Source: Gemmatimonadota bacterium (GTDB lineage Bacteria > JBHIER01 > G020348925). From it: a stretch of 64,000 bases of DNA. The notes beneath the pieces are model-generated. The model did no database searches and was not told where the DNA came from. It worked only from the letters and a program-made list of their open reading frames with translations. The stretch is taken from the NCBI GenBank assembly GCA_020348925.1, contig CP070758.1, forward strand, positions 2,189,177-2,253,176, in the 5' to 3' direction. Each line of letters begins with the position of its first letter. The first letter of the stretch is position 1. Below, in pieces: positions 34,226 to 52,474 of this stretch. The position numbers and the translations under genes were made by a program.

Positions 34226-35368
34226 TCATTTTTTATTAACATGTTGTGGCTTCGGGAGAACTTCTTCCATAAGCTCATCGTCAACGGCTCGCCCCTCAGC
34301 TAAGAGCTGGCGATATTTGATAAAATCGATAACGTCCACGCCCGTCATCTTCTTTGTATTGAAGGCATGAAATCCCAAAAATGCCTCGGTTGCCATATTG
34401 GCGGCCAGCCAGTGGCGATTGGCCAGTTTCGTCTGATCCCAGAAGAACTTTTTCTTCATACGGATGCCATCGATCGATTTTATCAGACAACCCGGCATGA
34501 GGTTGGTGAAGGTCCACACGATTTTGTCGACCTCCTTGTCCAGAAGCTCAAAATCGGTAGCGGCGGTCTTCAGAAAGTCCCTGGCTTTTTTCCCCTCTTC
34601 TCCCGTCACAAAATCGCCGTAGACAATCTCACCGTCCTCAAGATATGTATCAGTGATCACGGCGGGATTTCTGATAAATTGGCCATCCTGCTTGATAACC
34701 GGAGCAACCTTGCTCACCAGGCCCAGTCGCTTCATCTTGTAGGCGCTCCACAGCTCGCAGGAGACGCAGTTCCACATGGCATCCTCAATACCCAGAAACC
34801 AGGGCAGAAAATCCGTGGAGCCTCCGTCAGGGGCCGAACCGTGTCTCGGTCCGGCCTGACCGAATATGGCCGTATCCGCTGCAACGGCGAGGTCGCAGGC
34901 CATGCCGATCTCCTGCCCACCCGCCACCCTCATTCCATTAACACGACAGATGGTCGGCTTCTTGCACATCAGTATGGCATCGACCATGCCATTGAAGAGG
35001 TCCATATACTGCCCGTACTCTTCGGGCTTTTTTGAATAATACTCGGCGTACTCCTTCGTGTTTCCACCGGTGCAAAAGGCCCTGTCCCCGACAGCCGTGA
35101 AGACCACGGCGACCACACGTCGGTCCACGGAAGCCCTGTGGAATCCGGCGATCACGCCTTTGACCATCTCCGTCGTATACGAATTATACTGCTTCGGATT
35201 GTTCAGCGTAATCCAGGCCGTTTTCAAGACATCGATTTCGTTTCCTTTATTGTCAATGATCGGCCGCAGCTCGTACATCGTACACGGCGGCTCGGTCCCG
35301 AAATGTTCGTCTCCCCAGAGCGTATGATCTTTTATCTCATGATCGCGCGGCAACCAATCCAAGGCCAT
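34226..35368 (-). CDS. oah: 6-oxocyclohex-1-ene-1-carbonyl-CoA hydrolase (ring-opening enzyme of anaerobic benzoate degradation)
   Basis: Adds water and opens the ring to give 3-hydroxypimelyl-CoA, a marker step of anaerobic aromatic breakdown (also called BamA or BzdY). About 380 residues, the family length and much longer than ordinary enoyl-CoA hydratases. Distinctive stretches are DHTLWGDEHFG near the N-terminus, AWITLNNPKQYNSYTTEMVK, AFCTGGNTKEYAEYY, GGQEIGMACDLAVAADTAIF, GQAGPRHGSAPDGGSTDFLP and the KMKRLGLVSKVAP region. The start is ATG 35368, spaced 6 nt from AGGAGG (an ATG two codons earlier overlaps the site). It is separated by the repeat at 34068-34155 from the SDR gene. No benzoyl-CoA reductase genes are in the window. 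Confidence 0.93.
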   Translation of the reverse strand: MALDWLPRDHEIKDHTLWGDEHFGTEPPCTMYELRPIIDNKGNEIDVLKTAWITLNNPKQYNSYTTEMVKGVIAGFHRASVDRRVVAVVFTAVGDRAFCTGGNTKEYAEYYSKKPEEYGQYMDLFNGMVDAILMCKKPTICRVNGMRVAGGQEIGMACDLAVAADTAIFGQAGPRHGSAPDGGSTDFLPWFLGIEDAMWNCVSCELWSAYKMKRLGLVSKVAPVIKQDGQFIRNPAVITDTYLEDGEIVYGDFVTGEEGKKARDFLKTAATDFELLDKEVDKIVWTFTNLMPGCLIKSIDGIRMKKKFFWDQTKLANRHWLAANMATEAFLGFHAFNTKKMTGVDVIDFIKYRQLLAEGRAVDDELMEEVLPKPQHVNKK

Positions 35369-35462
35369 TCCCATCCTCCTTTCTCCTAAGTTTCAGAATG
35401 TTTACGGATCATATTTTCAACCAGGGTATGTCGTGCATCTTTTAATCATCCATTCGTCGGAT

Positions 35463-38887: not shown

Positions 38888-39826
38888 CTAAGCCGGGATG
38901 GCTTCTCGCACATACGTCAGCCAGCCGTGTCGATCCTCCTTTTCACCGGATGTAATGGCAAAGAATTCTTCTTGAAGTTGCTTCGTAATAGTTCCGACCG
39001 ATCCATCTCCGACGGGAATTTTATCGATGTACCCGATGGGTGTAATCTCGGCCGCACTGCCTGTAAAAAAGACTTCGTCGGCGATATAGAGACCTTCTCT
39101 GGGGATAAGCTGCTCGACAACCTCGTATCCCAACTCTTTGGCAAGTGTTATAATCGAATCCCTGGTGATACCCGGTAGAACAGAGGCCCCAAGGGGTGGA
39201 GTGCACAGAACGTCGTCGTTGACGATAAATATGTTTTCACCGCTCCCCTCACTGACATACCCATACACATCCAATGCGATCCCTTCCATGTAGCCATCCT
39301 TTACCGCTTCCATTTTTATAAGTTGTGAATTCATGTAGTTGGCCCCGCATTTGGCCAAAGCCGGAAACGTATTCGGAGCCATCCGTGCCCAGGAGGACAC
39401 CCTGACCGAAACACCTTTGTCAAGTGCCCCCTCCCCCAAATATTGTCCCCATCCCCATACGGCGATGGTTACTTCCACAGGGCAATTGAAGGGATTGACC
39501 CCGACATCACCGTATCCTCTGTAAACGACAGGCCGGACGTAACACTCCTCCATCTTATTCACACGAATGGTCTCTAAACAAGCGTCAAGAATCTCCTGTT
39601 TCGCGTAGGGTATCTCCATCCGATAAATCTTGCACGAATCATACAACCTATCAATGTGCTCTTGGAGGCGAAAACAGGCCGAACCTTTCTTCGTCTTGTA
39701 ACAACGCAATCCCTCAAAAAGACTTGTTCCATAATGGATGACGTGGGATAGAATGTGGATGTTGGCATCATCCCAATTGACAAATTTCCCGCTCATCCAG
39801 ATCTTTTCGGACTTTTCAAACGGCAT
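38888..39826 (-). CDS. ilvE: Branched-chain amino acid aminotransferase
   Basis: 312 residues of PLP fold type IV. Catalytic Lys159 in FPALAKCGANYMNSQL. Also visible are HVIHYGTSLFEGLRCY near the N-terminus, the cofactor-binding EGSGENIFIV, and the GITRDSIITLAKELG segment. It moves the amino group between leucine, isoleucine or valine and 2-oxoglutarate. In a block with methylcrotonyl-CoA carboxylase and acyl-CoA dehydrogenases it most likely starts branched-chain amino acid breakdown, but the same enzyme can finish their synthesis. The stop is 75 nt before the GDT1-like gene and the start is 41 nt after an acyl-CoA dehydrogenase, so it sits inside the operon. Confidence 0.94.
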   Translation of the reverse strand: MPFEKSEKIWMSGKFVNWDDANIHILSHVIHYGTSLFEGLRCYKTKKGSACFRLQEHIDRLYDSCKIYRMEIPYAKQEILDACLETIRVNKMEECYVRPVVYRGYGDVGVNPFNCPVEVTIAVWGWGQYLGEGALDKGVSVRVSSWARMAPNTFPALAKCGANYMNSQLIKMEAVKDGYMEGIALDVYGYVSEGSGENIFIVNDDVLCTPPLGASVLPGITRDSIITLAKELGYEVVEQLIPREGLYIADEVFFTGSAAEITPIGYIDKIPVGDGSVGTITKQLQEEFFAITSGEKEDRHGWLTYVREAIPA

Positions 39827-39867: not shown

Positions 39868-41007
39868 CTATTTCAGAAGACTGGCAGCGATCACCATCCG
39901 CTGCACTTCAGAAGTGCCCTCATAAATCTCGGTAATCTTCGCATCCCTGAACAACCGCTCCACCGGATACTCTTTCATGTATCCGTATCCCCCATGGATT
40001 TGTATGGCCTTCGTTGTCGTCCTCATCGCCACTTCTGAAGCAAAAAGCTTGGCCATGGCCGCTTCCTTCGAATACCGTCCACCACTGTCCTTGGCCCGGG
40101 CCGCCTGGTGGACCAGATGCCGGGCACCCTGAATCTCAGTCTCCATATCGGCCAGCATCCACTGAATAGCCTGAAATTCACAGATCGGCTTTCCGAACTG
40201 GGTGCGCTGTTTCGAATAGGCAATCGATTCATCAAGGGCGGCCTGGGCAATTCCCAGGGCCTGAGCAGCGATCCCAATTCTCCCTCCGTCGAGGGCATCC
40301 AGGGCGATCTTGAATCCCATTCCTTCTTCACCCAAGAGGTTCTCTTTGGGCACCTTGCAATCTTTGAAAACGAGCTCAGACGTATCACTGGCCCGAATAC
40401 CGAGCTTGTTCTCCTTCTTTCCCACCTCGAAACCATCCCATTTCTTCTCAACGATGAAAGCATTGATGCCCTTGTACTTCTGTTCCTTGTCGGTCATGGC
40501 AAAAACCACCACGGTATCCGACTTGCCCCCGTTGGTGACGAAGATCTTCGTACCATTAATAACGTAGTGATCTCCATCTCTAACGGCGGTGGTCTGCAGG
40601 TTCCCGGCATCGGAACCTGCGTCCGGCTCGGTTAAGGAAAAGGAACCCAGATGCGTTCCATTGGCCAAGGGAACGAGATATTTCTTCTTTTGCTCCTCGT
40701 TGCCGTATCTGAAAATCGGATGACACACGAGGGAGTTGTTTACCGACATGGTCACCCCACATGAAGCATCACCACGGGAAATCTCCTCCACGGCAATGAC
40801 ATAACTGACAGTGTCCATACCGGCACCGCCGTATTCCTCCGGGATCATCATGCCCATGAATCCCAATTCACCCATCTGTTTGACCTGTTTGGCCGGGAAT
40901 TCCTCGGTTTCGTCTCGCTCTGCAGACTCCGGTTTTAACTCATTCTCAGCGAAATCTCTGGCAGTTTTTTTAATAAACTGCTGCTCCTCAGTCAGTCCAA
41001 ATTCCAA
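39868..41007 (-). CDS. Acyl-CoA dehydrogenase (short-chain type, 1)
   Basis: About 379 residues. FAD flavoenzyme that makes the alpha-beta double bond in acyl-CoAs and passes electrons to electron-transfer flavoprotein. Landmarks are GSFSLTEPDAGSDAG, VNGGKSDTVVV-type FAD contacts (FVTNGGKSD), QTQFGKPI-like RTQFGKPICEFQAI, and QIHGGYGYMKEYPVERLFRD. The catalytic Glu is Glu363 in TEIYEGTSEVQR, the place used by butyryl-CoA and medium-chain enzymes; isovaleryl-CoA dehydrogenases lack it. No usual start fits; a TTG at 41007, 8 nt from GGAGG, gives MEFGLTEEQQ, a normal family start (a GTG three codons earlier lies in the ribosome site). Neighbours are the thiolase (92 nt upstream) and ilvE. Confidence 0.92.
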   Translation of the reverse strand: MEFGLTEEQQFIKKTARDFAENELKPESAERDETEEFPAKQVKQMGELGFMGMMIPEEYGGAGMDTVSYVIAVEEISRGDASCGVTMSVNNSLVCHPIFRYGNEEQKKKYLVPLANGTHLGSFSLTEPDAGSDAGNLQTTAVRDGDHYVINGTKIFVTNGGKSDTVVVFAMTDKEQKYKGINAFIVEKKWDGFEVGKKENKLGIRASDTSELVFKDCKVPKENLLGEEGMGFKIALDALDGGRIGIAAQALGIAQAALDESIAYSKQRTQFGKPICEFQAIQWMLADMETEIQGARHLVHQAARAKDSGGRYSKEAAMAKLFASEVAMRTTTKAIQIHGGYGYMKEYPVERLFRDAKITEIYEGTSEVQRMVIAASLLK

Positions 41008-41099
41008 AAGCCTCACCTCCTCATCGCTTCGATCATCATTGATCTTGTACTCATGACTTTGTTGCTTTTCGACTCTTCGACTTTTTTACATTTCGACTT

Positions 41100-43179: not shown

Positions 43180-44316
43180 TTAATCCCGTAGCAATTGTCG
43201 AGCTATTACCAATCTCTGAATCTCCGACGTCCCTTCACCGATCTCCGTCAATTTGGCGTCGCGCATGAATCGCTGCACCGGATATTCTCTCATATAACCC
43301 CGGCCGCCGTGAATCTGGACCGCATGGATCGTCGACCGCATGGCCACCTCTCCGGCGTACAGCTTGCACATGGCCGCCTCTTTGGTGAAGCGCACCCCAG
43401 AGTCCTTCATCCGAGAGGCATGATAGACCAAATGGCGAGCCGCTTCAATCTCCGTGGCCATATCCGCAATCTTCCATTGAATGGCCTGCAAATTGGCTAT
43501 CGGCTTTCCGAACTGAATTCGCTCCTTGGCCCATTCGATACTGGCATCAAGGGCTCCCTGCGCAATGCCCAGAGCCATGGCACCAATACTGATCCTGCCA
43601 CCGTCCAGGGTGATCATGAACTGTTTGAAGCCCTCGCCCTCTTTTCCCAAGATATTCTCTCTCGGAATCCGGCAGTTCTCGAATATCAGCTCACACGTGT
43701 CGGAGCCCCGAAGCCCCAGTTTATTCTCCTTTTTTCCGATTGTAAAACCGGGCGTTCCACGTTCAACGATAAAGGAGCTGATGCCTTTCGTCCCTTTGCT
43801 CTTGTCGGTCATGGCCGTAAAAACCACCGTCTTGGCAATACTGGCATTGGTGATAAAGCACTTTGTTCCATTGATGACGTAGTCATCGCCGTCCAGAACC
43901 GCCGTCGTCTGCGTTCCGGCAGCATCGGAACCGGCGTTCGGTTCGGTCAGGCCGAAGGCCCCGATCTCCTCGCCCTGCGCCAGGGGGATAAGATATTTCT
44001 TCTTCTGCTCCTCCGTCCCAAAGGCGTAAATAGGAAACGATCCGAGAGAAATATGTGCTGCATACGTGATGCCCGTCGATCCGCACACCCGTGAGATCTC
44101 CTCCACGGCGATGGTGTAATGCATCGTATCTTTCCCCGCCCCGCCATACGCTTTCGGAAAATTGATACCCATGATGTCCAGCCTTGCCATCTCCTTGACG
44201 GTGTCCCAGGAAAATTCTCCGGTCCTGTCGATCTCCTCTGCCTTGGGCTCAATGATCTCCTTGGCAAAGGTTCGCATTTTCTGTTGAAACGCAAACTCCT
44301 CCTGCGTCAGTTCCAT
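43180..44316 (-). CDS. Acyl-CoA dehydrogenase (short-chain type, 2)
   Basis: 378 residues from ATG 44316 after CGGAGGAAGA. Family features are [67 protein letters not shown] and the catalytic Glu in [12 protein letters not shown]. The Glu at that place argues for a butyryl- or 2-methylacyl-CoA enzyme rather than an isovaleryl-CoA dehydrogenase, which would normally have Gly or Ala there, even though the gene sits next to methylcrotonyl-CoA carboxylase subunits. It is 13 nt after the biotin carrier gene and 3 nt before the MBL gene, the tightest part of the operon. Confidence 0.93.
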
Positions 44317-44329
44317 TCTTCCTCCGATC

Positions 44330-44848
44330 TCAGTCAGCCGATCCCTCAAGAGGAGCAATCTCCACAAGAGGGACGCCCGCATCCACCAGATCACCATCGT
44401 TGTAATGTATTTTTTTCACCCGTCCATCTATGGGCGATCGCAGGGCATTTTCCATCTTCATCGACTCCACAATGATCAGGCTCTGATTTTTCTCCACGTG
44501 GTCGCCCTCAGTCACTTGAATTTTCACAACCGTCCCTGGCATGGGTGCGGCAAGGGACTGCTCCCCCGATGCAACCGAACCTCCCCTAACATATCCAGAC
44601 CGAGCGGTCTCTTCAACCTCCTCCAGACAGAAATGATACCCATCGATATGGAGGTATCTTTTCTGTTCACTCGCAGCGATGGAGACCTTATATGATCGAC
44701 CCTCGACCAAGAGGGACAGGCAATTTTCAGAAATAGGGCGAGCGTCAACAGGCACAGGGCCATCTCCAAAATCAATCGTGTAGTTTTCACCATCTGAGCG
44801 AACATCTATCTTGTATTGTTTTCCAGAAACTCCAAATTCGTATTCCAT
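44330..44848 (-). CDS. Biotin carboxyl carrier protein subunit
   Basis: 172 residues. The C-terminal half is a biotinyl domain with the ESMKMEN motif (biotin on Lys131), preceded by the [13 protein letters not shown] start of the fold. The N-terminal half ([16 protein letters not shown]) is the BT-type linker domain found in acyl-CoA carboxylases. It carries carboxybiotin between the biotin carboxylase and the carboxyltransferase. In most leucine degraders it is fused to the biotin carboxylase; here it is a separate gene 10 nt after accC. The start is ATG 44848, with GGAG 7 nt upstream. Confidence 0.93.
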
Positions 44849-44858
44849 GAAAACTCCA

Positions 44859-46373
44859 TCAGCTCGAAGCGATCTCCCACTTGCCAACCGTGTGCCACGG
44901 AGTGACCACCGCCTCTCGAAAACGGTTCGTACTCTTTGAAGGGGAAGCCTCTTTCATTGAGGCAATGGCTGCCGCGGCCAAGGCGACGTTGAGGCTTTCC
45001 CCGTTTTGGCCCTCTCCCCAATCGGCCATATGTCTCTCGATAAAGCTGGTGTATGTCCGGCCCGCAGCAAACTCGGGATGGGCGATAACGTCCCGCAGAA
45101 ACCCAACGGTCGTCCGAATGCCCAAAATGGTCAGTTCGGACAGGGCCGAAATCATCCGTTTACACGCAACATCCCTGTCCTCTCCCCAGACAATGAGCTT
45201 GGACAGAATGGGATCGTAATGGACCGGAACCGTCCAGCCTGAGTAAATGCCGCAGTCGTGCCGCACACCCGGGCCCGATGGCTCCTGCAGAAAGAGAATT
45301 TTTCCGGGAGAAGGCATGAAATTGTTCTCCGGATTCTCGGCATAAATTCGGCACTCGATGGCATGTCCCAGTTGGGTCACATCCTCCTGGCGAAGGGACA
45401 ATGTATCGCCGGAGGCGACGCGGATCTGCTGATGAACGAGATCGATGCCTGTGACCAACTCCGTCACCGGATGCTCGACCTGAAGCCGGGCATTCACCTC
45501 AAGAAAGTAGAAATTTCCCTCCCGGTCGAGAAGGAACTCCACCGTGCCGGCGTTGGAATACTCCGAAGCTCTGACCACTTTGAGGGCGGTCTCTCCCATC
45601 TTTGTTCTCAGATTATCGTCCAGGGCCGGCGATGGTGTTTCCTCGATAATCTTCTGATGGCGTCGCTGGATTGAACACTCCCGCTCGAAGAGATGAACCG
45701 CCTGACCGTGCTTATCGGCCAGGATCTGAAACTCAATATGGCGCGGTTCTTCGATATATTTTTCGATGTACACCGACGCATCCCCGAAGGCCGATTTGGC
45801 CTCTCTCATTCCCCCCTCAACGGCCTCTTGCAGTTCGTTCTCCGACCCGACCACCCGCATGCCCTTGCCCCCACCCCCGGCCGAGGCCTTGATCAATACT
45901 GGATAGCCAATCTTTTCGGCCTCTTCAACAAAGTCATCGGTCCCGCCACCCTTGTGCATCATGCCTGGAATAATGGGCACCCCTGCAGCGATCATGGTCT
46001 CGCGGGAAGCAACCTTATCACCCACCAGTTTCAACGCCTTTGAATCCGGGCCGATAAAGGTGATGTCCTCCTCCTCACACCGCTGGGCGAAGAGATGGTT
46101 CTCAGCCAGAAAACCGTAGCCCGGATGGATGGCGTCAGCCCCCGTGGCCTTGGCCGTATTGACGATTGTCTCAATATTGAGATAACTTTGAAGTGGGGCC
46201 GGTGGTCCGATACAGATCGCCTCGTCGGCAACCTGAACATGGAGTGACTCCCGATCCACCTCGGAATATACCGCCACCGTCGGGATTCCCAGCTCCCGGC
46301 ATCCCCTAATTATGCGAACCGCAATCTCCCCGCGGTTGGCTATTAAAATCTTTTTAATCACAAAATTATTCAT
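44859..46373 (-). CDS. accC: Biotin carboxylase subunit (acyl-CoA carboxylase alpha)
   Basis: 504 residues. ATP-dependent carboxylation of biotin. It shows ILIANRGEIAVRIIRGC at the start, HPGYGFLAEN, the ATP-grasp loop KASAGGGGKGMRVV, HLFERECSIQRRHQKI, FLEVNARLQVEHPVTE and the FMPSPGKI segment of the C-terminal domain. The fusion to a biotin domain usual in methylcrotonyl- or propionyl-CoA carboxylase alpha chains is absent; the last 50 residues are a short extension rich in Ala/Ser. With the beta subunit at 48224-49831 and the separate carrier protein it should form a methylcrotonyl-CoA carboxylase. ATG 46373 is the likely start, although the ribosome site is weak, so coupling to the upstream zinc-ribbon gene (27 nt) is plausible. 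Confidence 0.94.
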   Translation of the reverse strand: MNNFVIKKILIANRGEIAVRIIRGCRELGIPTVAVYSEVDRESLHVQVADEAICIGPPAPLQSYLNIETIVNTAKATGADAIHPGYGFLAENHLFAQRCEEEDITFIGPDSKALKLVGDKVASRETMIAAGVPIIPGMMHKGGGTDDFVEEAEKIGYPVLIKASAGGGGKGMRVVGSENELQEAVEGGMREAKSAFGDASVYIEKYIEEPRHIEFQILADKHGQAVHLFERECSIQRRHQKIIEETPSPALDDNLRTKMGETALKVVRASEYSNAGTVEFLLDREGNFYFLEVNARLQVEHPVTELVTGIDLVHQQIRVASGDTLSLRQEDVTQLGHAIECRIYAENPENNFMPSPGKILFLQEPSGPGVRHDCGIYSGWTVPVHYDPILSKLIVWGEDRDVACKRMISALSELTILGIRTTVGFLRDVIAHPEFAAGRTYTSFIERHMADWGEGQNGESLNVALAAAAIASMKEASPSKSTNRFREAVVTPWHTVGKWEIASS

Positions 46374-46400
46374 CAAAGGTCAGATGAAGGCTGAGATCGT

Positions 46401-46913
46401 TCACCCCGCAACAGGCGGTATAGTTTCAATAATGCGGTACAGTAGAAGCTTCGATATGACCACAAGATCTTTCGCTTCGGCGAAGAAACCCTTCTTTGGA
46501 TGCAATAGTTGTCTCGCCTCCTCTTCAAAAGCCTTGAAGTATGAAGCCAGGGAAAACTCCTTCTTCAGTTCCTCCAAATGGGAGATAAGTGTATCAAACT
46601 CCCCCTTATCAAGCCAAACTCCCTGGCATGTGGGGCAGATGTCAAGGGGAAGGTCCGCATACCCAGCGTAATTGATGACACTCATATTCTCATGACACTT
46701 CGGACAGGAACGTTCGCCCTGTTCGGTCGAAAGTTTCTCTGTGTCCGCCCAGAGTGAAAAATCGAAGCCTTCGAGCTTTCGATCCTTTTCATTCTTGGCC
46801 CGCTCCAGCTCCCCCTTGTCGAACCACAATCCGTCGCACTGCTCGCAGTGGTCGAGAACAATACCTTTAAAGTCGTGACGTTTTAAATCAACCCGGCAGT
46901 TAGGACATTTCAT
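46401..46913 (-). CDS. Protein with two TFIIB-type zinc ribbons
   Basis: 170 residues. Two zf-TFIIB units: MKCPNCRVDLKR...CEQCDGLWFDKGELER (1-40) and CPKCHENMSV...CPTCQGVWLDKGEFDTL (70-112). The C-terminal part is helical and hydrophobic near the end. These small proteins are common and poorly understood; they may bind nucleic acid or help assemble complexes. It lies 16 nt after the PPOX-family gene and 27 nt before accC. No role in carboxylase function is known. Confidence 0.88.
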   Translation of the reverse strand: MKCPNCRVDLKRHDFKGIVLDHCEQCDGLWFDKGELERAKNEKDRKLEGFDFSLWADTEKLSTEQGERSCPKCHENMSVINYAGYADLPLDICPTCQGVWLDKGEFDTLISHLEELKKEFSLASYFKAFEEEARQLLHPKKGFFAEAKDLVVISKLLLYRIIETIPPVAG

Positions 46914-46929
46914 GGGACCGCTTCCACTG

Positions 46930-47358
46930 TTATTCAGCCCGGTAGATATCGGGCTGCATTTTCCCAGGACTCATCAATTCGATGACCGACGGCGTTATTT
47001 TCAGGACGACGAGATTCGGATCATCGGGTCCGGAGAAGTAGGCTTTTAATTGATCGGACCAGAACCTCTTTTTCGTCTCAGCATCATCCAACACCTCTGC
47101 CGCGGCAGCAATATTCAGGTACGCGTGCTCCATATCGTTCGGATCGGCCCCAAGAATAACGTGGACATTGGGATCCGCCTTGATCTGGGCCACCTTGCGG
47201 GATTGAACAAAGGTGTTCACGTACAACGTCAGGTCGTCGGTCCCGTGGGTCATGACATAGCGAACCCACGGCCGATCATCCTTGATGGTGGCCAATGAGG
47301 CCAGGTGCGAACCTTTCAAAACGTCCAGGATCTTCTGCTTCAGCTCAGTTTCTTCCAT
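46930..47358 (-). CDS. Pyridoxamine 5'-phosphate oxidase family protein
   Basis: 142 residues with the split-barrel flavin fold: LASLATIKDDRPWVRYVM, DLTLYVNTFVQSRKVAQIKA, NVHVILGA. It is the short general-stress-protein-26 type and lacks the C-terminal part of true PdxH, so it probably binds FMN, F420 or heme and reduces a small molecule. It starts at ATG 47358 after GGGGGAAGGAA. It is 35 nt after the hydratase gene and 16 nt before the zinc-ribbon gene, inside the carboxylase operon. The physiological substrate is unknown. Confidence 0.87.
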   Translation of the reverse strand: MEETELKQKILDVLKGSHLASLATIKDDRPWVRYVMTHGTDDLTLYVNTFVQSRKVAQIKADPNVHVILGADPNDMEHAYLNIAAAAEVLDDAETKKRFWSDQLKAYFSGPDDPNLVVLKITPSVIELMSPGKMQPDIYRAE

Positions 47359-47393: not shown

Positions 47394-48191
47394 CTAATCA
47401 ACGGACCACTTCGGTTTTCTTTTCTCAAAGAATGCGGACATCCCTTCCTGCGCCTCCGCCCCCTCCCTCAATTTGGCCAGGACGTCGGCCGTATAGGCCC
47501 TTGCCTCTTCAAAATCCAGTTGAGGAACCTGTTGCAGCAGCTGTTTGCAGACATGGAGGGCATAGGGTCCACTGGAGAGCAGTTGCTTGACTCTCTCTCC
47601 GACAGCTGCATCGAGCTCCCCCTCGGGAACGACCTGATTCACAAGACCCGATTCCAAGGCTCTCTGGGCGGTGAGCCGCTCCCCGGTCAGAAAGAACTCC
47701 CGGCACCTGCTCTCGCCGACCCGACGGACCACGTAAGGAGAGATGCAGGCCGGGACGACACCGATCTTCACCTCGCTGAAACTGAAAACGGCGGATTCGG
47801 CGGCGATGGCCAGGTCACACACGGCTACAAAGCCTGTCCCCCCACCGATGGCAGGCCCGTTGATTCGAGCAATCGTAGGCTTCGGTGATGAATACATACT
47901 GTACATCAATTCCGCAAGTCTGAGGGTGTCCTCGAAATTTTCTTGATACGAGTATCCCTGTATCCTCTTCATCCAGTGAAGATCCGCACCAGCACAGTAA
48001 CATGTCCCACGACCCGTTAAAACAACGACTCTGACATCATCTCGCCCCGCAATATTGTCAAATACTTCCAGCAACTCTCCGATCATAACGTCATTGAACG
48101 CGTTGCGTATCTCTGGGCGGTTCAATGTCACCCTGGCAACCAGATCCTCAACAGTGTACAGGATGGTCTCGTATTCTTTTTTCTCAGCCAT
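47394..48191 (-). CDS. liuC: Methylglutaconyl-CoA hydratase-like enoyl-CoA hydratase
   Basis: 265 residues of the crotonase fold. Oxyanion-hole elements are CYCAGADLHWMKRIQGYS and GPAIGGGTGFVAVCDLAIAA, followed by FSFSEVKIGVVPACISPYVV. The GADLxWMKR and SEVKxGxxPAxISPYV words are those of LiuC/AUH, which hydrates 3-methylglutaconyl-CoA to HMG-CoA in leucine and isovalerate breakdown. The position directly after the methylcrotonyl-CoA carboxylase beta gene (32 nt) supports this. The product HMG-CoA can then be taken by the synthase encoded upstream. A general enoyl-CoA hydratase is the alternative. Confidence 0.88.
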   Translation of the reverse strand: MAEKKEYETILYTVEDLVARVTLNRPEIRNAFNDVMIGELLEVFDNIAGRDDVRVVVLTGRGTCYCAGADLHWMKRIQGYSYQENFEDTLRLAELMYSMYSSPKPTIARINGPAIGGGTGFVAVCDLAIAAESAVFSFSEVKIGVVPACISPYVVRRVGESRCREFFLTGERLTAQRALESGLVNQVVPEGELDAAVGERVKQLLSSGPYALHVCKQLLQQVPQLDFEEARAYTADVLAKLREGAEAQEGMSAFFEKRKPKWSVD

Positions 48192-48223
48192 GTATTGTCC
48201 CCAGATAGTCTTTGAAACTACAG

Positions 48224-49831
48224 CTACATTCGAAAGACACCGAATCGGTGATCAGGAACTGGTGCATTCAGAGCCATGGATATGCCCAGTCCGAGGCATG
48301 TCCGCGTATCCAGGGGATCGATGATGCCGTCGTCCCACAGCCTCGCCGTGCTGTAATAGGGGCTCCCCTCCTCCTCATACTTTCTCAGCGTCGGCTCTTT
48401 GAACTTCTCCTGCTCCTTATCACTCATCGTCTTGCCTTCGGCCGCCAGCTGAGCGAGCTTAACGGTCAGAAGAACATTGGACGCCTGTTCGCCCCCCATG
48501 ACGGAGATACGGGCGTTGGGCCACATCCACAGAATCCGCGGGAAATAGCCCCTCCCGCACATGGCATAATTTCCAGCTCCGTAGGAACCGCCGAAGATGA
48601 CCGTGAAGCGGGGCACCTGGGCCGTGGCCACGGCGTGGACCATCTTCGCTCCGTCTTTGGCGATGCCTCCATGTTCGTACTGTTTGCCGACGATAAATCC
48701 GGTGATATTCTGCAAGAAGAGAAGGGGGATCTTTCGGACGGCACACATGGAGACAAAATGAGCCCCCTTTTGGGCGCTCTCCGAGAAGAGGACGCCGTTA
48801 TTGGCCACAATGCCCACCGGATACCCCATGATGCGGGCATAGCCGGTAACGAGGGTCGTTCCGTACCGCTCCTTGAATTCGTGAAAGCGGCTGCCGTCAA
48901 CGATCCGGGCGATAACCTCCCGACTGTCGAACGGTCTTCTCAAATCTTTGGGAACGATGCCGTATATCTCCTCCGGATCGTAGTAGGGGTCCTCCGGTTC
49001 ATCCCGCTCCAAGTCGAACTTCCGGGGGATCGGGATATTCTCAACGACGTTGCGGCACAATTCGATGGCATGCTCGTCATTCAGGGCAAAATGATCGGAG
49101 ACACCGGATATTCTCGTGTGAACATCGCCCCCACCCAGCTCCTCGGGCGTCACATCGACCCCGGTGGCCGCTTTCACCAGCGGGGGTCCGCCGATGAAGA
49201 TGGTGCCCTGTTCTTTGACGATGATGGTCTCATCACTCATAGCCGGCACGTAGGCCCCGCCGGCCGTACACGATCCCATGACAACCGAAATCTGCGGGAT
49301 ACCGAGGGCTGAAAGCCGGGCCTGGTTGTAAAAGATTCGACCAAAATGCTCCTTGTCCGGAAAGACTCCGGCCTGCAAGGGCAGAAAGACACCCCCCGAG
49401 TCCACCAGATAGATGCACGGCAGTCGGTTCTCGAGAGCCACTTCCTGGGCCCGGACATGTTTTCTGACCGTCTCGGGGAAGTAGGTCCCACCTTTCACAG
49501 TGGCATCATTGGCCACAATGAGGACCTCTTTTCCATGAACCACTCCAATGCCGGTGACAATACCGGCGCAGGGAGCCTCATTGTGGTACAAACCATATGC
49601 GCACAGGGGACTCAACTCCAAGAACGGTGTATTCTTATCCAGTAAACGGTCAAGGCGTTCCCGAACGGTCAATTTTCCTCTGGCCTTGTGTTTCTCAACG
49701 GCCTTGGCCGGTCCACCCTTCTTCACTTCGGCCAATCGTTCTTGAAGCTCGGACACGACCCGACGCATGTGCTCCCGATTTTCCTGGAACTCAGGGCTGG
49801 CTGTGTCTATATGAGATTCGATTCGATACAT
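48224..49831 (-). CDS. liuB: Methylcrotonyl-CoA carboxylase-type carboxyltransferase (beta) subunit
   Basis: 535 residues with two crotonase-like carboxyltransferase domains. Features are [15 protein letters not shown] near the N-terminus, [20 protein letters not shown], the oxyanion segments [13 protein letters not shown] and [15 protein letters not shown], and in the second domain [27 protein letters not shown] and [16 protein letters not shown]. The end ([19 protein letters not shown]) is characteristic of methylcrotonyl-CoA rather than acetyl- or propionyl-CoA carboxylases. It transfers carboxyl from biotin to 3-methylcrotonyl-CoA, or the reverse. It lies 36 nt after the DUF35 gene and so joins the HMG-CoA synthase trio to the leucine-type set. 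Confidence 0.94.
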
Positions 49832-49867
49832 GTGGATGCTTCGCTTTTCGGTGGAACTTAAAAAGGA

Positions 49868-50260
49868 TCACACCGGAACACATTTGTATCCGTAACAGAG
49901 GATGCCCGCTTCACCCACAGTCTGGATCCGACGAAATTCGACCTTCACCTTCTGGCCGATCTCCAGATGCTCCACGTCGCAGTCAACGACCTGAGCTGTC
50001 AGTCGCACGCCGTCATTCAATTCGACGATCCCGATCGCATAGGGCGCTTCATCGACAAATTGGCTCGGGGCCACGCGAATGACGGTGAACGTCTGCAACG
50101 TCCCCTCATCCTTCAGACGGACGATCTCGAATTCCCTGGCCCCGCACGCACAGACCAACCTCGGAGGGAAATAGGTCTTCCCGCAGCGGGTACATTTGCC
50201 CGCCTCCAGTCTGTACCTTTGAGGAATTTCACGCCAGTATCTCGCTGGTGTCACCATCAC
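49868..50260 (-). CDS. DUF35 OB-fold/zinc-ribbon protein of the HMG-CoA synthase complex
   Basis: 130 residues. An N-terminal rubredoxin-like zinc ribbon ([18 protein letters not shown]) is followed by an OB fold ([30 protein letters not shown]). In archaea DUF35 proteins bridge acetoacetyl-CoA thiolase and HMG-CoA synthase and share one CoA-binding site, which lets the endergonic thiolase step be drained directly. The gene overlaps the thiolase stop by 4 nt (ATGA) and lies directly after the synthase-thiolase pair, the same order as in archaea. I therefore read it as the third subunit of that complex. Confidence 0.92.
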
Positions 50261-51414
50261 TGCACCTCCAATATATGCACAAGGGTGCTGCCACCACTGC
50301 CGCCCATATTCTGCGTCAATCCAACCCGGGCACCCTCAACTTGTCGTTTGTCCGCCTCTCCGCGAAGCTGTTTCACAATCTCAACAACCTGGGCCACACC
50401 TGTGGCTCCCACAGGATGGCCCTTGGCCTTGAGGCCCCCGCTGGCATTCACCGGTATCTTTCCCCCCAGAGCCGTCAGTCCGCTCTCGGCCGCCGTCCCC
50501 CCTTTGCCCTTCTCAATGAACCCCAAAGCCTCAATGACACAAATCTCCGCTATGGTGAAACAGTCATGCACTTCGGCCAAATCGATATCCTCGGGCTTCT
50601 TACCGGCCATCTGATAGGCAGCTTCCCCTGCCTTGGCCGTAGCGTTCAAGGTCGTAACATCGTCACGGCTGTGGAGGGCTATGGTATCTGTGGCATGACC
50701 GACCCCGGTTATTTTCACGACCGGCTTATCCGTTAGGGTCTTAGCCATATCAAGGGGACACAGGATAACGGCAGCGGCCCCGTCTGTGATGGGCGAGCAA
50801 TCGAGGATCCTGAGCGGGTCCGCCACCATGACAGAGCTCAGGACACCCTCAACCGTCACCTCGAACGGATACTGAGCCAACGGATTCAAGGCTCCGTGCC
50901 GATGATTCTTGACCGCGACATGAGCCAGTTGTTCTCGTGTCGTTCCATAGGTGTGCATATGGGCCCGGGCCATCATCGCATAGAGACCCGGAAAGGTAAC
51001 TCCATGAAATCCTTCATATTCTTGATCGGCCGCCGTGGAAAGGGCGTAAGTGGCCTGATCCCCACCGACGTCGGTCATTTTTTCCACACCGGAGACGAGA
51101 ACGATATCGCTGAAGCCCGCGGCCACTTCGAGAAAACCCTGCTTGACGGCCAGACCACCGGAAGCACACGCCGATTCGACTCTTGCCGCGGGAATAGGGC
51201 CCATGCCCAGGTAATCGGCCAGCTGGGAGGCCAGATGTTCCTGCCCGACAAAGAGTGCGCTGGTCATGCATCCCACATACATCGAATCGATGTGATCGAC
51301 GCCGGCATCATCGATGGCCAAGAGGGCTGTCTCCACAAAGATATCCCTGAGGGCTTTGTCCCACAGCTCCCCCCATTTCGTCATACCGATTCCAATGACT
51401 GCTACATCCCTCAT
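50257..51414 (-). CDS. Acetoacetyl-CoA thiolase of the archaeal/SCP-x type
   Basis: 385 residues from ATG 51414 after AGGAGAAGGATA. It belongs to the SCP2-thiolase-like branch, not the FadA/AtoB branch of the other three thiolases: it starts [16 protein letters not shown], has the nucleophile Cys83 in [14 protein letters not shown], and later [17 protein letters not shown] and [17 protein letters not shown] with the catalytic His. This is the thiolase that in archaea forms a complex with HMG-CoA synthase and DUF35. It lies 10 nt after the synthase gene and overlaps DUF35 by 4 nt. It can make acetoacetyl-CoA for the synthase or cleave it in the reverse direction. Confidence 0.92.
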
Positions 51415-51424
51415 TATCCTTCTC

Positions 51425-52474
51425 CTATTCAGTAATCTTGTTGATTTTGCCTCGAAATTTCGCGTAGGTCCCGTATTCAAGATAATTCTTGTTGCTGTCC
51501 AGCATCACCCTCGTCTTCGGTGCCATATCACGCACCTCTTCGATTCGGTCAGTGACGGTGAAGATGAACCCATCGCTGCCAGCCCCGGAACCATAGGAGC
51601 ACATCAGAATTTTGTCTCCCGGAACGGCGATATCCAACGTGGCCGTCAAGCCCATGGGCGATGAACCGGAATAGGTGTTGCCCAGCTTCGGAACCAGCCA
51701 GCCCGGCTCAATCTGTTCCCGCTTGAAGCCCAGCATCTTGCCGACCCTCATGGGAAACTTTCCGTTGGGCTGATGGAATATGGCGTAGGCGAAATCCTCG
51801 GGCTTCATTTGGGCCTTCTCCATGATGCCCCTGGCACATCCGGTGATGTGTTTGAAATAGGCCGGCTCACCTGTGAATCGGCTGGCATGCCGGGGATAAT
51901 ACTGATACTCCCGTCGCCAGAAATCGGGCGTATCGGTCATAAAGGCGTAAGTCAGATCGACGGAGGCAACAATATTCTGCTTCCCGAAGATGAAGGCCGC
52001 TGCTCCCGCCGAGGCTGCATATTCTAAGGCGTCACCCGGGGCTCCCTGGGACGTATCCGCACCGATGGCCAGACCGTAAGAGATGTGTCCTGCCTCAACC
52101 TGACTGAGAACGACGTACATACCCTCCGAGCCGGCCTTACAGGCAAACTCAAAATCGGCCGTATGGACCTCCGGCGTCGCTCCCAGAGCTTCGGCCACTA
52201 CTGTTCCGCTCGGTTTCACGGCATACGGATGGGATTCCGAACCGATATAGACAGCTCCGATCTCTTGGGGATCGATCCCCGCTCGCCGTAATGCATGTTT
52301 CGAAGCCTCAACCGACATCGTGATCGTATCCTGATCCGGGGATGGTACGGACTTCTCTTCCAACATCAATCCTCTCTTGTAGCTCGGTGCATCTGCGCCC
52401 CACACCTTGGCAATCTCTTCCACTCGAATTCTATTTCTCGGCATGTAGGCACCATAGCCAACAATTCCAACCAC
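51425..52474 (-). CDS. Hydroxymethylglutaryl-CoA synthase, archaeal type
   Basis: 349 residues, the length of the archaeal enzyme (eukaryotic and Firmicute ones are longer). Condenses acetyl-CoA with acetoacetyl-CoA, or runs in reverse. It shows [13 protein letters not shown] (79-91) with Glu80, nucleophile Cys112 in [12 protein letters not shown], a later FHQPNGKFP with the catalytic His, and [15 protein letters not shown] 52474 has AGGAGG five bases upstream and is the likely start. It is the first gene of the HMGCS-thiolase-DUF35 trio, 43 nt after recJ. In a bacterium this operon is unusual. Without mevalonate genes nearby but with leucine-type enzymes directly downstream, a catabolic use (HMG-CoA to acetyl-CoA) is as likely as isoprenoid synthesis. 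Confidence 0.93.

What the first reader, a model, noticed from the sequence alone, without database searches (positions are those of the whole stretch)
47394..52474. Archaeal-type HMG-CoA synthase / thiolase / DUF35 complex joined to methylcrotonyl-CoA carboxylase: a lyase-free route for HMG-CoA
The three archaeal complex genes are in archaeal order with a 10-nt gap and a 4-nt overlap, and are followed by liuB and liuC in one transcript. Standard leucine breakdown ends with HMG-CoA lyase, which is not in the window. The trio run backwards would turn HMG-CoA into three acetyl-CoA and save the energy lost as free acetoacetate, which would suit an anaerobe living near the energy limit. The opposite direction (acetyl-CoA to HMG-CoA to methylcrotonyl-CoA, as in the alternative isovaleryl-CoA route of myxobacteria) is also possible. 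I know of no described pathway with this gene set.
Basis: inference. Interest (0 to 1): 0.8.

Follow-up and report, generated by a model that had tools for sequence, protein, structure and literature searches.

The report
Reversed HMG-CoA synthase complex degrading leucine
Bacteria of many little-known phyla appear to finish breaking down leucine by running an archaeal lipid-building enzyme complex backwards, instead of using the usual cleaving enzyme; this would yield three energy-rich acetyl-CoA where the usual route gives one plus free acetoacetate.

Summary
HMG-CoA synthase, thiolase and DUF35 (52474-49868, minus strand) are full-length archaeal-complex proteins with intact catalytic residues. 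They lead an operon that goes on to methylcrotonyl-CoA carboxylase (both subunits), methylglutaconyl-CoA hydratase, acyl-CoA dehydrogenases and a branched-chain aminotransferase.
The genome has no HMG-CoA lyase, no HMG-CoA reductase (it has the MEP gene ispG) and no class I CoA-transferase, so it lacks both acetoacetate reactivation and the AibAB decarboxylase.
The operon HMGS-thiolase-DUF35-LiuB-LiuC-BC-BCCP recurs in more than ten phyla. In 60 carboxylase loci of one large phylum the gene's neighbour is either canonical lyase (21) or the trio (15), never both. Acetoacetate-type CoA-transferase occurs in 34 of 43 lyase genomes and in 0 of 37 trio genomes.
[quoted passage not shown] Direction and activity are inferred; no biochemistry was done. 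The swap looks like one event in the carboxylase tree, so P values overstate independence. No published description found, in a partial library.

The parts
51425..52474 (-). HMG-CoA synthase, archaeal type
   Evidence: TIGR00748 543 bits over cut-off 353; best solved match 6ESQ chain I, E 3e-137; Glu in GSESHPY, Cys in EFACKAG, His in FHQPNGK kept
50257..51414 (-). Acetoacetyl-CoA thiolase of the archaeal (SCP2-like) complex type
   Evidence: PRK06064 556 bits over cut-off; 6ESQ chain A E 2e-113 and 7YVY E 6e-115; catalytic Cys (SACASG), HDCF and GHPVGATG kept
49868..50260 (-). DUF35 zinc-ribbon/OB scaffold protein
   Evidence: Best solved match 6ESQ chain E, E 6e-30; 4-nt overlap with thiolase gene
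48224..49831 (-). Methylcrotonyl-CoA carboxylase beta subunit (LiuB)
   Evidence: Solved MCC beta chains 723-775 bits, against GCC 464 and PCC about 290; only strong copy in the genome
47394..48191 (-). Methylglutaconyl-CoA hydratase (LiuC/AtuE family)
   Evidence: PRK07468 264 bits and PRK05674 (gamma-carboxygeranoyl-CoA hydratase) 255 bits, best of 73 families though below their cut-offs; SEVKxGxxPAxISPYVV motif
46930..47358 (-). PPOX-fold flavin/F420-type oxidoreductase, role unknown
   Evidence: TIGR03618 41 bits, below cut-off
46401..46913 (-). Small protein with CxxC zinc-ribbon pairs, role unknown
   Evidence: CPNC...CEQC and CPKC...CPTC pairs read in sequence; no NCBIfam match
44859..46376 (-). 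Biotin carboxylase (MCC alpha, carboxylase part)
   Evidence: PRK08591 663 bits over cut-off
44330..44848 (-). Biotin carrier protein (MCC alpha, carrier part), ESMKMEN biotin site
   Evidence: PRK05641 80 bits, below cut-off; motif read in sequence
43180..44316 (-). Acyl-CoA dehydrogenase, SCAD-type (GEGT glutamate), candidate isovaleryl-CoA dehydrogenase
   Evidence: AcrC-like 530 bits, below cut-off; catalytic motif
39868..41016 (-). Second acyl-CoA dehydrogenase of the run
   Evidence: 549 bits to AcrC model, below cut-off
38888..39826 (-). Branched-chain aminotransferase (IlvE), first step from leucine
   Evidence: PRK06606 440 bits over cut-off 279

Best explanation
The operon encodes a lyase-free leucine/isovalerate degradation pathway. 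Leucine is transaminated and oxidised to isovaleryl-CoA, dehydrogenated to methylcrotonyl-CoA, carboxylated by MCC and hydrated to HMG-CoA (standard chemistry, assigned by homology). The archaeal-type HMGS/thiolase/DUF35 complex then runs backwards. HMGS forms an enzyme thioester from the free carboxylate of HMG-CoA and retro-cleaves it to enzyme-bound acetyl and acetoacetyl-CoA. The thiolase cleaves acetoacetyl-CoA without releasing it. Net reaction: HMG-CoA + 2 CoA to 3 acetyl-CoA + H2O. This replaces HMG-CoA lyase plus acetoacetate reactivation and keeps one more thioester, about what MCC spends as ATP. Shown here: gene content, operon, intact catalytic residues, absence of lyase, reductase and CoA-transferase, and mutual exclusion with lyase. 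Inferred: direction, energetics, substrate.
For: HMG-CoA has a source (MCC plus LiuC) but no other sink in this genome: the single HMGL-family protein is IPMS/homocitrate-synthase-like, HMG-CoA reductase is absent, and ispG of the MEP pathway is present. The operon HMGS-THL-DUF35-LiuB-LiuC-BC-BCCP(-ACD) recurs across more than ten phyla: LiuB lies directly downstream in 29 of 59 loci with enough sequence, and the only widely recurring true genes found around the trio are leucine-pathway genes. Of 39 trio genomes, 33 lack HMG-CoA reductase; only 5 have a lyase-model hit over the cut-off, four of them in a side subfamily (GGCPFTK instead of GGCP[YF]A.G). Beside LiuB sits lyase (21 loci) or trio (15), never both, in 60 loci. 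None of 19 LiuB-linked trio genomes has canonical lyase. Acetoacetate-type CoA-transferase: 0 of 37 trio genomes against 34 of 43 lyase genomes; the genome itself has no PF01144 protein at all. Catalytic residues of both enzymes are conserved in all or all but one of 32 LiuB-linked loci. [quoted passage not shown]
Against: No biochemical, expression or growth data. HMG-CoA synthase is textbook-irreversible in the cleavage direction. The trio/lyase swap is one change on the LiuB tree, so the genome statistics are not independent events. Several trio-bearing genomes lack LiuB or carry HMG-CoA reductase, so the same complex serves other ends elsewhere. The dehydrogenase in this operon lacks the isovaleryl-CoA dehydrogenase glutamate signature. 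The genome is 96% complete with some masked stretches, so a lyase could be hidden. 21 of 102 LiuB genomes have neither lyase nor trio.
Confidence: 0.72

Rival explanations
1. Biosynthetic direction: acetyl-CoA is built up to HMG-CoA, dehydrated by LiuC and decarboxylated to methylcrotonyl-CoA and isovaleryl-CoA, as in the alternative isovaleryl-CoA route of myxobacteria.
For: Same intermediates; LiuC is reversible; the trio's known direction is synthetic; an acyl-CoA dehydrogenase/reductase is nearby.
Against: The decarboxylase AibAB belongs to the class I CoA-transferase family (own knowledge), which is absent from this genome and nearly absent from trio genomes. The operon holds a complete ATP-using carboxylase instead. 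A branched-chain aminotransferase lies in the run. The trio replaces lyase in otherwise degradative Liu operons.
Confidence: 0.1
2. The trio makes HMG-CoA for mevalonate and isoprenoids, as in archaea, and its neighbourhood with the leucine genes only reflects the shared intermediate HMG-CoA (leucine as an extra source).
For: Closest characterised relatives are archaeal mevalonate-pathway enzymes. 6 of 39 trio genomes do carry HMG-CoA reductase.
Against: No HMG-CoA reductase in this genome or in 33 of 39 trio genomes; ispG of the MEP pathway is present here.
Confidence: 0.06
3. HMG-CoA is cleaved by an unrecognised lyase, and the thiolase/DUF35 pair or another enzyme acts as a simple retro-aldolase giving free acetoacetate, like the thiolase-like aldolases Sal and Ltp2 with their DUF35 partners.
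For: Related thiolase/DUF35 pairs do catalyse retro-aldol cleavage (PMC12329534).
Against: Both HMGS and thiolase keep their full condensing-enzyme residues, and HMGS would have no role. Free acetoacetate would need a CoA-transferase that these genomes lack.
Confidence: 0.08

Closest known systems
[quoted passage not shown]
   Different: Bacterial, in a leucine operon, in a genome without HMG-CoA reductase; proposed to run in the opposite direction
Leucine/isovalerate (Liu) pathway with HMG-CoA lyase LiuE; isovalerate degradation of Desulfococcus multivorans with HmgL (PMC5109826)
   Same: Carboxylase, hydratase and dehydrogenase steps and operon logic
   Different: Lyase replaced by the trio; no acetoacetate CoA-transferase in trio genomes
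Alternative isovaleryl-CoA biosynthesis (Aib) of myxobacteria
   Same: HMG-CoA synthase plus LiuC-type hydratase working on the same intermediates
   Different: Has the AibAB decarboxylase (family absent here) and no MCC; HMG-CoA synthase of another type (own knowledge)
Reversed oxidative TCA cycle (Desulfurella, reversed citrate synthase; PMC9768450)
   Same: Works like it: a Claisen-type CoA synthase running backwards in place of a lyase, with no new enzyme family
   Different: Other enzyme and substrate; there the direction is proven, here inferred

Membership tests
Archaeal thiolase/HMGS/DUF35 complex | HMGS of the archaeal type (TIGR00748) | tested here: met
   543 bits, cut-off 353
Archaeal thiolase/HMGS/DUF35 complex | Thiolase and DUF35 partners homologous to 6ESQ chains, encoded next to HMGS | tested here: met
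Archaeal thiolase/HMGS/DUF35 complex | Catalytic Glu/Cys/His of HMGS and Cys/His of thiolase | tested here: met
   Conserved in all or all but one of 32 LiuB-linked loci
Archaeal thiolase/HMGS/DUF35 complex | Physical complex with fused CoA-binding site and channelling | not tested
   No multimer prediction or biochemistry
Mevalonate pathway | HMG-CoA reductase in the same genome | tested here: not met
   PF00368 absent; control rings in 5 known genomes
Leucine (Liu) degradation pathway | MCC beta, biotin carboxylase, biotin carrier, methylglutaconyl-CoA hydratase | tested here: met
   hydratase called by motif and best family, below the equivalog cut-off
Leucine (Liu) degradation pathway | Isovaleryl-CoA dehydrogenase with Glu254-type signature | tested here: inconclusive
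   Operon dehydrogenase here is SCAD-type; L019 and L022 have the IVD-type motif
Leucine (Liu) degradation pathway | HMG-CoA lyase as last step | tested here: not met
   No PRK05692 match in the genome; single PF00682 protein is IPMS-like
Aib isovaleryl-CoA biosynthesis | AibAB decarboxylase (class I CoA-transferase fold) | tested here: not met
   No PF01144 match in the genome

The most novel reading that the evidence does not exclude
A widespread anaerobic leucine/isovalerate pathway, spread over more than ten bacterial phyla, in which the archaeal HMG-CoA synthase/thiolase/DUF35 complex runs as a channelling retro-Claisen machine (HMG-CoA + 2 CoA to 3 acetyl-CoA). It replaces HMG-CoA lyase and acetoacetate CoA-transferase and makes isovalerate oxidation ATP-positive.
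Probability: 0.65. Interest if true: 0.85.

Novelty: new variant of a known kind. Interest (0 to 1): 0.75.

Why it matters
Annotation pipelines read this trio as mevalonate biosynthesis and score these genomes as lacking the last step of leucine breakdown; both would be wrong. It would be another case, after citrate synthase, of a supposedly one-way CoA synthase run backwards in nature in place of a lyase. It would also explain how anaerobes can gain ATP from leucine or isovalerate: with lyase plus acetoacetate reactivation, the thioester given up cancels the ATP balance after MCC and activation. The substrates are major products of protein decay in sediments, and the operon is common in poorly known phyla (Aminicenantes, Zixibacteria, Eisenbacteria, Coatesbacteria, Latescibacterota and others). 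The claim is directly testable with purified proteins.

Tried and rejected
A phylum survey around the window's own genome gave one genome only, so the survey was moved to the phylum of an operon-bearing Aminicenantes genome. First counts showed four LiuB genomes with both trio and lyase. Inspection showed three of those lyase hits belong to the weaker-scoring class, whose sampled members carry GGCPFTK in place of the canonical motif; the fourth (G099) has canonical lyase but its trio is not beside LiuB. Linkage to LiuB is not a single clade in the HMGS tree, but trio against lyase is one change in the LiuB tree. Considered and rejected: mevalonate use (no reductase), Aib-type synthesis (no AibAB family), geranyl-CoA route (LiuB scores as MCC). 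Paper searches found no description of this gene set; the key 2018 paper on the archaeal complex is not held.
Full report
OBSERVATION. The 10-nt gap and the 4-nt overlap are exact. HMGS scores 543 bits to the archaeal HMG-CoA synthase model (cut-off 353). The solved Methanothermococcus complex 6ESQ/6ET9 is the first or (for thiolase, narrowly) second match of each of the three proteins. LiuB is MCC-like, not PCC- or GCC-like. The operon is longer than stated. A PPOX-type protein and a zinc-ribbon protein follow, then biotin carboxylase, biotin carrier and an acyl-CoA dehydrogenase; further on lie a second dehydrogenase and an IlvE aminotransferase. The gene set therefore covers leucine to HMG-CoA apart from the 2-oxoacid oxidation step, which was not found in the run.

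WHAT CONSUMES HMG-CoA? In the 5.04-Mb genome (one contig, 96.3% complete) the only HMGL-family protein is a 418-aa isopropylmalate/homocitrate-synthase-like protein beside ferredoxin oxidoreductase genes; it gives 25 bits to the HMG-CoA lyase model. HMG-CoA reductase is absent. IspG of the MEP pathway is present, though part of that gene reads N. The class I CoA-transferase family, which holds acetoacetate CoA-transferases and (own knowledge) AibAB, is absent altogether. HMG-CoA thus has a source (MCC plus hydratase) and no recognised sink except the trio.

DISTRIBUTION. A scan of bacterial and archaeal species genomes gave 80 loci at 65-81% identity, nearly all MAGs from Aminicenantes, Zixibacteria, Eisenbacteria, Coatesbacteria, Delongbacteria, Latescibacterota, KSB1, Planctomycetes, Acidobacteria, Myxococcota and others. 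The order HMGS-THL-DUF35-LiuB-LiuC-BC-BCCP, often with an acyl-CoA dehydrogenase, recurs widely. Of 59 loci with at least 3.3 kb downstream, 29 have LiuB there, 8 have LiuC only and 4 have these genes elsewhere in the locus. Clustering of all neighbouring frames recovered as widely recurring true genes only the trio, LiuB (42 loci), LiuC (40), BC (36), BCCP (24) and acyl-CoA dehydrogenase (16). In two Eisenbacteria operons the dehydrogenase carries the isovaleryl-CoA-dehydrogenase-type glutamate (LDTER, and GGGT instead of GEGT).

EXCLUSION OF LYASE. Of 39 trio genomes, 5 pass the lyase model cut-off. Four of these are a side subfamily with GGCPFTK where canonical lyases have GGCP[YF]A.G; the fifth (G011) has canonical lyase but no LiuB ortholog. 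HMG-CoA reductase occurs in 6 of 39. In 396 genomes of the phylum of an Aminicenantes genome, 102 have a LiuB ortholog: 54 lyase only, 23 trio only, 4 both, 21 neither. With canonical lyase only, one genome has both, and there the trio is not beside LiuB. In 60 of these LiuB loci the neighbour is lyase (21) or trio (15), never both. This is the signature of non-orthologous replacement of one step. On the LiuB tree trio against lyase is a single change, so the P values (4e-8 and the like) overstate independence. The stronger argument is that one swapped operon then persisted across more than ten phyla.

AN INDEPENDENT PREDICTION. If lyase makes free acetoacetate, a CoA-transferase should accompany it; if the trio makes acetyl-CoA only, none is needed. 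SCOT-like pairs (E at most 1e-50) occur in 34 of 43 lyase-LiuB genomes and in 0 of 37 LiuB-linked trio genomes; 3 of the 37 have distant family members. The caveat is lifestyle and ancestry: most lyase genomes here are probably aerobic acidobacteria.

MECHANISM. The HMGS Glu, Cys and His and the thiolase Cys, HDCF and GHxxGATG residues are conserved in all or all but one of 32 LiuB-linked loci, so both condensing enzymes should be active. I infer the retro reaction: the HMGS cysteine forms the thioester with the free carboxylate of HMG-CoA; retro-Claisen cleavage gives acetyl-enzyme and acetoacetyl-CoA; the thiolase, which in the archaeal complex shares a CoA site with HMGS (described in PMC12329534), cleaves it on the spot. 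By analogy (thiolysis about -26 kJ/mol; synthase about -30 kJ/mol, both from general knowledge) the sum is close to equilibrium. The concentration term is -17 to +4 kJ/mol over three plausible sets of pools, so the reverse is feasible but not guaranteed. Reversed citrate synthase is a proven precedent for this kind of change (PMC9768450). ATP accounting (inference): three acetyl-CoA, one spent to activate isovalerate and one ATP on MCC, leaves about one ATP; the lyase route with CoA transfer leaves about none.

RIVALS. Mevalonate use is excluded in this genome by the missing reductase. Aib-type synthesis lacks its decarboxylase family and would have to run an ATP-dependent carboxylase backwards. 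A retro-aldolase role of the thiolase/DUF35 pair alone, like Sal/Ltp2, would leave HMGS without a task and release acetoacetate that cannot be reactivated by a known transferase.

NOVELTY. The parts are known and the use is, as far as the held open-access library shows, undescribed. Isovalerate degradation in the anaerobe Desulfococcus multivorans is annotated with lyase HmgL (PMC5109826). I rate it a new variant of a known kind.

LIMITS. No biochemistry; MAG-based absences; masked stretches in the genome; one evolutionary swap; the dehydrogenase for isovaleryl-CoA in this genome is not identified with certainty; subscription literature was not searchable.

Noticed in passing
window 34226-35374: 6-oxocyclohex-1-ene-1-carbonyl-CoA hydratase (Oah), 567 bits over cut-off 464: suggests anaerobic benzoyl-CoA degradation in this organism.
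   Followed up: no
L001:1120-2376: The genome's only HMGL-family protein is IPMS/homocitrate-synthase-like, far below all equivalog cut-offs, encoded directly after 2-oxoacid:ferredoxin oxidoreductase-like genes; may be a Re-citrate synthase or similar.
   Followed up: partly
window 46401-47358: A PPOX-type flavin/F420 protein and a small zinc-ribbon protein sit between LiuC and biotin carboxylase; not found as recurring genes in the relatives' operons.
   Followed up: no
L084, L085, L086, L087: A second HMG-CoA-lyase-like subfamily with GGCPFTK in place of GGCPYAPG; passes the lyase model cut-off and may act on another substrate.
   Followed up: partly
L078:9923-16472: Variant operon: trio, LiuC, then a 2-oxoacid:ferredoxin oxidoreductase; the carboxylase genes nearby on the other strand are only 36% like LiuB.
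   Followed up: partly
L047:9638-11518: An AtuA (acyclic terpene utilisation) gene directly downstream of the trio in a Chlorobiota-labelled MAG.
   Followed up: no
L040, L051, L055, L061: Planctomycete loci: trio followed by LiuC and biotin carboxylase, in most also with a carboxyltransferase only 33-37% like LiuB; substrate unclear.
   Followed up: partly
window genome G000: It is the only held genome of its phylum, so the organism belongs to a very sparsely sampled lineage.
   Followed up: no
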